Shown piece by piece: positions 46,060-47,945 of a stretch of DNA of 64,000 nucleotides. Source of the stretch: Natronomonas salsuginis (GTDB lineage: Archaea > Halobacteriota > Halobacteria > Halobacteriales > Haloarculaceae); NCBI RefSeq assembly GCF_005239135.1, contig NZ_QKNX01000004.1:1-64000 (forward strand), given 5' to 3'. The position numbers and the translations under genes were made by a program. Positions within the stretch are counted from its first letter, which is position 1. Every line of letters starts with the position of its first letter. The notes beneath the pieces were generated by a model. The model had not been told where the DNA came from. It did no database searches and saw nothing but the letters and a program-made list of their open reading frames with translations.

Positions 46060-46410
46060 TCAGTCGAGCCCGAGTATCTCTCTCGCCTGCGCCGGCGTCG
46101 CGACCGCCCGCTCCAGCGTCCCGGCCAGCTCCGCCGCCCGCGCGACGAGCTGTTCGTTCCCGGTCGCCAACTCGCCGCGACGGTAGTAGACGTTGTCCTC
46201 TAGCCCGACGCGGACGTGCCCGCCCAGTATCGTCCCGAGCGCCGCGAACGGCAGCTGATGGGGACCGAACCCGAGCGTGTTGAAGATCGTGCCTTCCGGG
46301 AGGTTACGGAGAATCGAGGAGAAAGCCTCGCGCGTTAGCGCGGGGATGAATCCGACACTACCCTTCACAGTCCACCGTTCGATGGCACGGCTGGATATTC
46401 CACGCTGAGC
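46060..46410 (-). pseudogene. BKACE (DUF849) family C-terminal fragment
   Basis: The minus strand encodes RWTVKGSVGFIPALTREAFS, then SILRNLPEGTIFNTLGFGPH and GTILGGHVRVGLEDNVYYRR, ending ATPAQAREILGLD at 46060. This is the C-terminal third of a beta-keto acid cleavage enzyme (3-keto-5-aminohexanoate cleavage type), which normally has about 280-300 residues. The catalytic N-terminal part, including the zinc-binding His residues, is missing. The break coincides with the left end of a tnpB element, and the missing half is not found on its other side. Confidence 0.8.
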
Positions 46411-46451
46411 AAATACACAGCTTCAAGTAAGTTGACCTACATAGGTTACGT

Positions 46452-47732
46452 ATGGCGAAACAGGTCGTTACTCGCACCTATACTGCTTCCATACGGAACC
46501 AGTCTCGGGTGCAAGACGACCTTGATTCGCTCGGGTTCGCAGCCAGTAAGATCTGGAACGTCGGACGGTGGACGTGTAGTCGGATCTGGGATGAAATCGA
46601 TCACATTCCCAACCACAACGAGCTCACCACGTACCTCAAAACCCACGACCGCTATGATGATCTGCATTCGCAGTCAAGTCAGCGAGTCCTTCAAGAACTC
46701 GCTGAGGCGTTCAACGGCTGGTACGGCAAACGACGTAACGGAGACACGAGAGCGAACCCGCCCGGCTATCGTAAACACGGCGATGAACACCCTCGTTCCA
46801 CAGTCACGTTCAAAGCCGCTGGCTTCAAACTCGACACCCAGTACAACCGCGTCCGACTCTCAAAAGGATCGAACCTGAAAGAGTACTGGTCGGATTTTGT
46901 CCTGTGTACGTACCAAACTCGTCCCGACGTTGACCTCTCCGCCGTGGAGAACGTCCAACAAGCCAAGATTGTGTGGACGGGCGACGAGTGGGAACTACAC
47001 TTCGTCTGTAAGGTCGAAATCGATGTGACTGAAGCTCCCGGTGAGAAGACTGTGGGTGTTGATCTCGGGATCAACAACTTTGCCGCGCTCGCCTACGAGG
47101 ACGGCCACAGCGAGCTGTACCCGCTGAACTGTTTGAAGCAGGACGACTACTACTTCAGCAAGCGAATCGCTCGGTGTGACGGCTCGAACTCCGAGCAGGC
47201 CACCCGGCTGAACCACAAGAAGTCGGCTCGCCGTACCCACTATTTCCATACGCTCTCGAAACACATTGTTGAACGGTGTGTTGAGGAAGACGTTGGAACG
47301 ATCGTAGTGGGAGATCTCTCGGGAGTCCGCGAAGATGACGACGCTAACGAGTCGAAAAACTGGGGGAAACACGGCAACCTCGACTTGCACTCGTGGGCAT
47401 TCGACCGGTTCACCGACCTCCTCGAATACAAGGCGGAGATGGAAGGTATCACCGTCGAAGAAGCCTCCGAGGAGGACACGTCGAAGTCGTGTTCTTGCTG
47501 TGGTCGCAAACGTGACTCGAACCGTGTCGAACGTGGGTTATACGTGTGCGATGAATGCGGTACAGTGGCGAACGCTGACGTGAACGGGGCCGAGAATATC
47601 CGACAAAAAGTATCTCCGAGTCCCGCCACGGATGGCGGTGATAGGAGTAACGGCTGGTTGGCACAGCCATCGACGTTCCTGTTTGACAACGAAACTGGTG
47701 TATTCGCACCTCAAGAACAGGTTACGTCGTAA
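46452..47732 (+). CDS. tnpB: TnpB-type RNA-guided nuclease homologue
   Basis: 426 residues, full length. N-terminal helix-rich domain (MAKQVVTRTYTASIRNQSRV), RuvC-I GVDLGINNFAAL with Asp204, RuvC-II position VGTIVVGDLSGVRE, a zinc finger CSCCGRKRDSNRVERGLYVC (Cys347, 349/350 and 366/369) and RuvC-III NADVNGAENI with Asp376. TnpB family members cut DNA guided by RNA from the element's right end, promoting retention. Residue 287, where most TnpBs carry the catalytic Glu (x-E-D-L), is Gly here (V-G-D-L). Haloarchaeal relatives may share this. Confidence 0.9.
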   Translation: MAKQVVTRTYTASIRNQSRVQDDLDSLGFAASKIWNVGRWTCSRIWDEIDHIPNHNELTTYLKTHDRYDDLHSQSSQRVLQELAEAFNGWYGKRRNGDTRANPPGYRKHGDEHPRSTVTFKAAGFKLDTQYNRVRLSKGSNLKEYWSDFVLCTYQTRPDVDLSAVENVQQAKIVWTGDEWELHFVCKVEIDVTEAPGEKTVGVDLGINNFAALAYEDGHSELYPLNCLKQDDYYFSKRIARCDGSNSEQATRLNHKKSARRTHYFHTLSKHIVERCVEEDVGTIVVGDLSGVREDDDANESKNWGKHGNLDLHSWAFDRFTDLLEYKAEMEGITVEEASEEDTSKSCSCCGRKRDSNRVERGLYVCDECGTVANADVNGAENIRQKVSPSPATDGGDRSNGWLAQPSTFLFDNETGVFAPQEQVTS

Positions 47733-47772
47733 ACCACAATATCCCAACCTAGCGGCGCGGTGCCGTGGGAAT

Positions 47773-47792
47773 CCTCGCGCTTCAGCGCGGGG
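47773..47792 (+). ncRNA. Right-end hairpin, likely 3' part of guide (omega) RNA
   Basis: cctcgcgc-ttca-gcgcgggg forms a stem with one wobble pair, 40 bases after the tnpB stop, followed by aggatgtcaac. In IS605-type elements this end is the transposase-recognition hairpin and the 3' scaffold of the omega RNA, with the guide just beyond the element end. The RNA boundaries cannot be set from sequence alone. Confidence 0.5.
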
Positions 47793-47945
47793 AGGATGTC
47801 AACATCCGCGTGTAGTGGTTAAAACCCCGCGCGTCGTTCCGAGACCGAAAGTCGACGAGGAGTGACGCTCGAACGCGCGTCCCGGAGCCGAAACGCCGAT
47901 AGCTCAGGAGCCAGTACCGATCACCGACCGATCACTTCACCGCCC

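What the first reader, a model, noticed from the sequence alone, without database searches (positions are those of the whole stretch)
46452..47732. Solo TnpB with Gly in place of the RuvC-II Glu
The RuvC-I (D204) and RuvC-III (D376) aspartates and the zinc finger are intact, but the usual x-E-D-L reads V-G-D-L (G287). If the alignment is right, this TnpB may be nuclease-impaired and act as an RNA-guided binder, as in TnpB-derived repressors, or a haloarchaeal clade uses another acid. The element lacks tnpA.
Basis: partly seen in the sequence, partly recalled or inferred. Interest (0 to 1): 0.5.

Follow-up and report, generated by a model that had tools for sequence, protein, structure and literature searches.

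The report
TnpB with relocated catalytic glutamate
This is an ordinary mobile-element RNA-guided DNA cutter of salt-loving archaea whose third catalytic acid sits at a different, already described place in the protein, so it looks intact rather than dead.

Summary
The sequence facts hold: window 46452-47732 encodes a 426-aa TnpB with D204, D376 and the zinc finger intact and G287 where RuvC-II usually has Glu; no tnpA. A nuclease-impaired binder is not supported. E340, with six residues between it and the first zinc-finger Cys, fits the published alternative glutamate (Ealt) of Fanzors and some TnpBs (PMC10711439). In 236 alignable TnpBs the two columns swap without exception: 108 have G287 and E340 (query included), 128 have E287 and no E340, none has both or neither. 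A second sample, chosen by a DNA motif, gave 24 and 47, three gapped rows, no exception. The model puts E340 in the loop after strand 334-339. The gene is under purifying selection (dN/dS 0.079-0.135 in 32 pairs). The element (TTAC, then 46308-47802) is complete, carries the Rfam omega RNA sot0042 (194.8 bits), and its guide has no TTAC-flanked target in its own genome at the stringencies tried. Best reading: a TnpB with a rearranged but probably working RuvC site, a new member of a known kind. Cleavage and active-site distances were not tested.

The parts
46304..46307 (+). TTAC target/TAM-like tetranucleotide immediately left of the element
   Evidence: Position. TTAC (44) or TTAT (4) within 16 nt of the left-end box in 48 of the 51 loci where that box was found, out of 80 examined (3 without, 29 loci with no box found).
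46308..46368 (+). Left end of the element, with a subterminal hairpin
   Evidence: Conserved from TTAC|GGAG onward with variable DNA before it in relatives; similar stretches recur in own and same-genus genomes.
46452..47732 (+). tnpB, 426 aa; D204, E340 and D376 as proposed catalytic triad, G287 at the canonical RuvC-II Glu position
47310..47312 (+). Codon of G287 (canonical RuvC-II Glu position)
47469..47471 (+). Codon of E340, proposed relocated catalytic glutamate (Ealt)
   Evidence: E340-x6-C347 fits the Ealt pattern of PMC10711439; Glu in 108 of 108 Gly-type and 0 of 128 Glu-type rows.
47608..47793 (+). omega RNA scaffold overlapping the 3' end of tnpB (Rfam RF02656 sot0042)
   Evidence: cmscan 194.8 bits, gathering 88, E 1.5e-54, model 1-174 of 174; 47608-47822 folds with z-score -4.07.
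47763..47802 (+). Right-end hairpin and terminal GTCAA; element ends at 47802
   Evidence: Copies agree up to GGAGGATGTCAA and then differ; this right-end type present in 74 of 80 loci.
47803..47822 (+). Predicted guide segment of the omega RNA (flanking DNA)
   Evidence: Inferred from the right-end boundary; genome searches.

Best explanation
A complete solo-TnpB element of IS200/IS605 (IS1341-like) organisation in a haloarchaeon (placement inferred from nearest relatives). TnpB binds the omega RNA made from its own 3' end and right flank, finds a TTAC-flanked match to the guide and cuts it. The RuvC metal site is D204-E340-D376: the glutamate has moved from the strand at 287 (now Gly) to the loop just before the zinc finger (340), as published for Fanzors and the Ealt group of TnpBs. 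Shown here: sequence, conservation, reciprocal swap, intact ends, omega RNA match, purifying selection. Inferred: that E340 binds metal and that the protein cuts DNA in vivo.
For: E340-x6-C347 fits the published Ealt spacing. Of 237 distinct rows, 236 had letters in both columns: 108 G/E, 128 E/non-E, 0 E/E, 0 G/non-E. In a sample picked by a right-end DNA motif, 74 frames gave 24 G/E, 47 E/non-E, 3 with a gap, no exception. Of the query's Asp/Glu that are acidic in at least 97% of Gly-type rows, those in the RuvC region (195-386) are only D204, E340 and D376 (108/108 each) and E381 (106/108). AlphaFold2 model (pLDDT 81.1, pTM 0.72; blocks 281-290 and 331-340 at 87 and 89): strand 281-288 holds G287, strand 334-339 ends just before E340. 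PMC11423790 section 7 puts the catalytic Glu on the loop between the fifth strand and the TNB domain. VIA-align Z 20.1 to ISDra2 TnpB 8exa and 19.0 to Fanzor2 9b0l. dN/dS 0.079-0.135 in 32 pairs. In SpuFz1, E541, D383, N385 and D606 hold the metals (PMC10432273 passage).
Against: No cleavage data. No coordinates, so no distance from E340 to D204 or D376 was measured. PMC11423790 section 7 gives its loop description for Fanzor, TnpB and Cas12a alike, so it does not by itself tell Ealt from the canonical site. That SpuFz1 E541 is the Ealt residue was taken from PMC10711439's general statement on Fanzors, not checked by alignment. The swap is not many independent events: one change on one tree, two on a broader one, where starred branches force two, one origin not rejected (p-AU 0.346). 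The own assembly lacks a Y1 transposase, so present mobility is not shown.
Confidence: 0.9

Rival explanations
1. A nuclease-dead TnpB kept as an RNA-guided DNA binder or repressor (TldR-like).
For: The canonical RuvC-II Glu is absent; the element is solo and no Y1 transposase matched in the genome.
Against: A fixed acid stands at the published alternative position and is missing in none of 108 Gly-type rows. RuvC-I and RuvC-III Asp are fixed in those rows and the zinc-finger Cys are invariant in the 58-row alignment. Ends intact, flanks differ between copies. No TTAC-flanked guide match in the own genome: with 16 guide bases and up to 3 mismatches only its own right flank; with 11 guide bases and up to 1 mismatch nothing. 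Shorter seeds and other TAMs were not tried.
Confidence: 0.05
2. Another nearby acid (D288, E294, E336 or E337) replaces the Glu.
For: They are close in sequence.
Against: In the 33-row alignment these columns vary: 288 D/N/E, 294 E/D/K, 336 E/T/D/K/N/A, 337 Q/L/E/R/T/S, and none passes the 97% acidic filter in the 108 Gly-type rows, whereas 340 does.
Confidence: 0.02
3. A decaying copy: the Gly is an inactivating mutation of a stranded element.
For: No Y1 transposase in this genome, whereas 13 of 20 genomes searched in the genus have one (7 without, this one included); the two flanks do not join into one gene.
Against: G287 is shared by 108 rows; dN/dS 0.079-0.135; ORF, omega RNA and both ends intact.
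Confidence: 0.03

Closest known systems
Ealt TnpBs of the D-hydrophobic-G type (PMC10711439; section 23 and passages seen)
   Same: Glu six residues before the zinc finger, no Glu at the canonical site, RuvC-I motif DLG.
   Different: No difference found in what was tested; words beginning 'archaea' or 'halo' do not occur in that main text.
Halobacterium salinarum IS200/IS605 tnpB with sotRNA (Rfam RF02656 sot0042; PMC12558985 abstract and sections 3, 19 read)
   Same: Same omega RNA family in the same place over the 3' end of tnpB; a place 80.6% identical over 95% of the element query lies on an H. salinarum plasmid (H13).
   Different: Other species and guide; expression was not examined here.
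Fanzor / pro-Fanzor (PMC10711439, PMC10432273, PMC11423790; passages, and section 7 of the last)
   Same: Relocated RuvC-II glutamate.
   Different: RuvC-I is DLG here, not DPG; IS200/IS605-type ends beside TTAC rather than IS607 or eukaryotic transposons.
ISDra2 TnpB (8exa)
   Same: Overall fold, Z 20.1 over 314 residues.
   Different: ISDra2 has the canonical Glu (recalled; not looked up in a call).
TldR, TnpB-derived repressors (PMC13418256 seen as a search listing only; otherwise recalled)
   Same: TnpB ancestry, no tnpA beside it.
   Different: No loss of the triad if E340 counts, intact transposon ends, no chromosomal guide target found at the stringencies tried.

Membership tests
Ealt TnpB (PMC10711439) | E-x6-CxxC before the zinc finger, RuvC-III Asp 4-8 residues after it | tested here: met
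   Script match 340-376. The short pattern E-x6-CxxC occurs anywhere in the chain in 107 of 108 Gly-type and 2 of 128 Glu-type rows.
Ealt TnpB (PMC10711439) | No Glu at the canonical RuvC-II site | tested here: met
   G287.
Ealt TnpB (PMC10711439) | The Glu lies in the metal site of the folded protein | tested here: inconclusive
   Position after strand 334-339 agrees; no coordinates for distances.
pro-Fanzor / Fanzor | DPG at RuvC-I together with Ealt | tested here: not met
   D204-L205-G206. Residue 205 in the 108 Gly-type rows: Leu 102, Ile 4, Phe 1, Pro 1.
TnpB / NF040570 guided_TnpB | Score over the curated cut-off | tested here: met
   208.7 bits against 100.
IS200/IS605 (IS1341-like solo tnpB) | Hairpin ends, insertion beside a short target motif, omega RNA at the right end | tested here: met
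   The definition is recalled.
IS200/IS605 (IS1341-like solo tnpB) | Mobilised by a Y1 transposase | tested here: inconclusive
   None in the own assembly; 13 of 20 genomes searched in the genus carry one.
TldR repressors | Loss of RuvC catalytic acids (recalled) | tested here: not met
   Triad complete with E340.
TldR repressors | Guide matching a host promoter beside a TAM (recalled) | tested here: inconclusive
   No TTAC-flanked match in the own genome at the stringencies; shorter seeds and other TAMs not tested.
Active RNA-guided endonuclease | Guide-dependent DNA cleavage | not testable with these tools
   Needs a bench assay.

The most novel reading that the evidence does not exclude
The haloarchaeal Ealt clade, kept under purifying selection even in a genome without a recognisable Y1 transposase, serves its host or plasmid rather than transposition, and the relocated glutamate tunes it (for example less collateral cutting), so that it acts as a guide-RNA nickase or binder in vivo.
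Probability: 0.05. Interest if true: 0.5.

Novelty: new member of a known kind. Interest (0 to 1): 0.12.

Why it matters
It removes a false lead: Gly at RuvC-II in a TnpB does not mean a dead enzyme, and a scan for TnpB-derived repressors should look at the position seven before the first zinc-finger Cys before calling the triad lost. It also gives a large haloarchaeal set, with omega RNA and TTAC motif in hand, in which the Ealt site could be tested outside Fanzors.

Tried and rejected
Dead-nuclease reading: rejected on conservation and swap. Compensation by D288, E294, E336 or E337: rejected, these columns vary. Simple insertion into the BKACE gene: not borne out, joining the two flanks in a script did not give a continued BKACE frame. 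Chromosomal guide target: none found. A first TAM count was misphased by my own pattern and is not used; one search replaces it. Triad distances: no coordinate file was in the box. A residue-level alignment to Fanzor2 9b0l was not obtained: only the top five alignments are printed and it ranked lower. PMC11061315 held none of the five terms I looked for.

Limits of the counts. The 108 include the query. In one search E340 was 32 of 33; the odd row is a fragment of another TnpB on the opposite strand of L036. In one search only stop-to-stop frames of at least 250 aa without X were used; 243 hits gave 237 distinct rows, and L073 has no letters in the two columns. The sampling leans: one search gave loci to the best scorers of a general TnpB profile, and one of the two patterns (9 loci) contains the canonical Glu; the patterns touch neither column. 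In one search, 3 of 74 rows have a gap at column 287 or both. In one search only L046-L095 of exactly 7278 bases were tried: 32 pairs given, L049 and L082 left out for stops, L052 for an N. The second tree dropped rows with under 250 letters, has one long-branched row (L007), and its starred branches force two changes. Rfam sot0042 did not reach its threshold at the Gly-type loci L002, L003 and L007. The structure alignment used 57 hand-picked loci plus the query.

Full report
What is there. The ORF at 46452-47732 (+) is a 426-aa TnpB (Pfam OrfB_IS605 and Cas12f1-like_TNB; NCBIfam guided_TnpB 208.7 bits over a cut-off of 100). Solved relatives found by sequence include Cas12f, TnpB and the TnpB-like protein L79, which a structure title calls mimivirus Fanzor2.

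The missing glutamate. PMC10711439 (section 23 and passages seen) defines a canonical RuvC-II glutamate about 50 residues before the zinc finger and an alternative one (Ealt) six residues before it, in Fanzors and in TnpBs of which one clade has a D-hydrophobic-G RuvC-I motif. Its search pattern asks for E, six residues, then CxxC. The window protein has E340, six residues, C347, and DLG at RuvC-I. I recall that two other 2023 papers (PNAS and Science Advances) also describe this rearrangement; they are not held.

Test of the swap. I aligned the query with TnpBs from its own genome, relatives, named genomes, whose titles are haloarchaeal or uncultured archaeal (79 loci), its phylum and viral contigs. 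Of 237 distinct rows, 236 had letters at both columns: 108 Gly287/Glu340 (query included); 128 Glu287 with Pro 72, Arg 27, Gln 15, Ala 8, Lys 4, Ser 1, Thr 1 at 340; none with both or neither. The own genome holds both types: the window copy, L002-L004, L006 and L007 are Gly/Glu; L008-L011 are Glu/Pro; L005 is an N-terminal piece. Of the query's acidic residues in the RuvC region, only D204, E340 and D376 are acidic in 108 of 108 Gly-type rows; E381 is in 106. E85, outside RuvC, is Glu in 105 of 105.

These are not many independent events. With the two columns removed, a tree of 109 representatives (9 Gly-type) needs one change (SH-aLRT 97). A tree of 122 (19 Gly-type) with the motif-chosen rows needs two, and its starred branches force two: one group of 7 with the window protein and one of 12 viral rows; one origin is not rejected (p-AU 0.346). 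The argument rests on complete fixation within a diverse group, not on repeated convergence.

Structure. AlphaFold2 with 58 rows gave pLDDT 81.1, pTM 0.72; G287 is in strand 281-288 and E340 directly follows strand 334-339. PMC11423790 (section 7) puts the catalytic Glu on the loop between the fifth strand and the TNB domain, though it says so for Fanzor, TnpB and Cas12a alike; PMC10711439 states that the Ealt Glu is in a distinct but consistent place in its models. The fold matches Cas12f (Z up to 24.6), ISDra2 TnpB 8exa (Z 20.1, 314 residues) and Fanzor2 9b0l (Z 19.0, 341 residues). No coordinates were available, so the geometry of the triad is inferred.

The element. A left-end box was found in 51 of 80 loci, with TTAC (44) or TTAT (4) just before it in 48 and variable DNA further out. 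A right end GGAGGATGTCAA occurs in 74 of 80, after which sequence differs. Here that gives TTAC 46304-46307, element 46308-47802 (1495 bp), guide from 47803. Rfam sot0042 covers 47608-47793 (194.8 bits, gathering 88). Of 11 loci given to it also hits L046, L058, L070, L087, L113 and L125; it does not reach threshold in the Gly-type L002, L003 and L007, nor in the Glu-type L008 and L156. Sense overlapping transcripts of H. salinarum tnpB genes, generalised as RF02656 and RF02657, are treated as omega RNAs in PMC12558985 (sections 3 and 19). dN/dS to 32 relatives is 0.079-0.135.

Function. The element lacks tnpA and the own assembly has no Y1 transposase match, though 13 of 20 genomes searched in the genus do. 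The guide has no TTAC-flanked target in the genome at the stringencies. With intact ends and differing sites, this is what a mobile-element TnpB looks like rather than a domesticated repressor. The likely job is the known one: cutting the guide-matched empty site so that the element is copied back or kept. That step is inference from established TnpB work (recalled).

Verdict. Observation confirmed; dead-nuclease reading not supported; 'another acid' reading supported and already known in kind. New member of a known kind, low interest.

Noticed in passing
46060-46303, - strand: C-terminal fragment of a beta-keto acid cleavage enzyme (PF05853, 104.6 bits) that ends at the element's left end; its ORF reads on into the left end, and the right flank does not continue the gene, so a deletion or recombination probably went with or followed the insertion.
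   Followed up: partly
47762-47804 and L156:2501-2543: The omega RNA right end (43 bp) is 90.7% identical to DNA on enterobacterial plasmids (781 of 911 matching plasmid records are Klebsiella). In the one plasmid looked at, it follows a canonical-Glu tnpB split between frames. The same right-end motif goes with both active-site types in viral contigs.
   Followed up: partly
L006 and L007 (own genome): A second, very different Gly/Glu-type TnpB (27 and 28% identical to the query) with motifs GGL and SEAWTS and a longer C-terminal tail; L007 is not hit by Rfam sot0042.
   Followed up: partly
G000 C7:679-743, C2:675027-675091, C1:318537-318589, C3:16277-16330: Left-end-like sequences of this element elsewhere in the genome; some may be truncated or tnpB-less copies.
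   Followed up: no
L038, L049, L082: Some relatives carry stop codons within the matched tnpB stretch, so decayed copies coexist with intact ones.
   Followed up: no
L245: A canonical-Glu TnpB lies on a 55,145-base IMG/VR contig, the same length as halovirus ChaoS9 in a paper abstract; identity of the two not checked.
   Followed up: no
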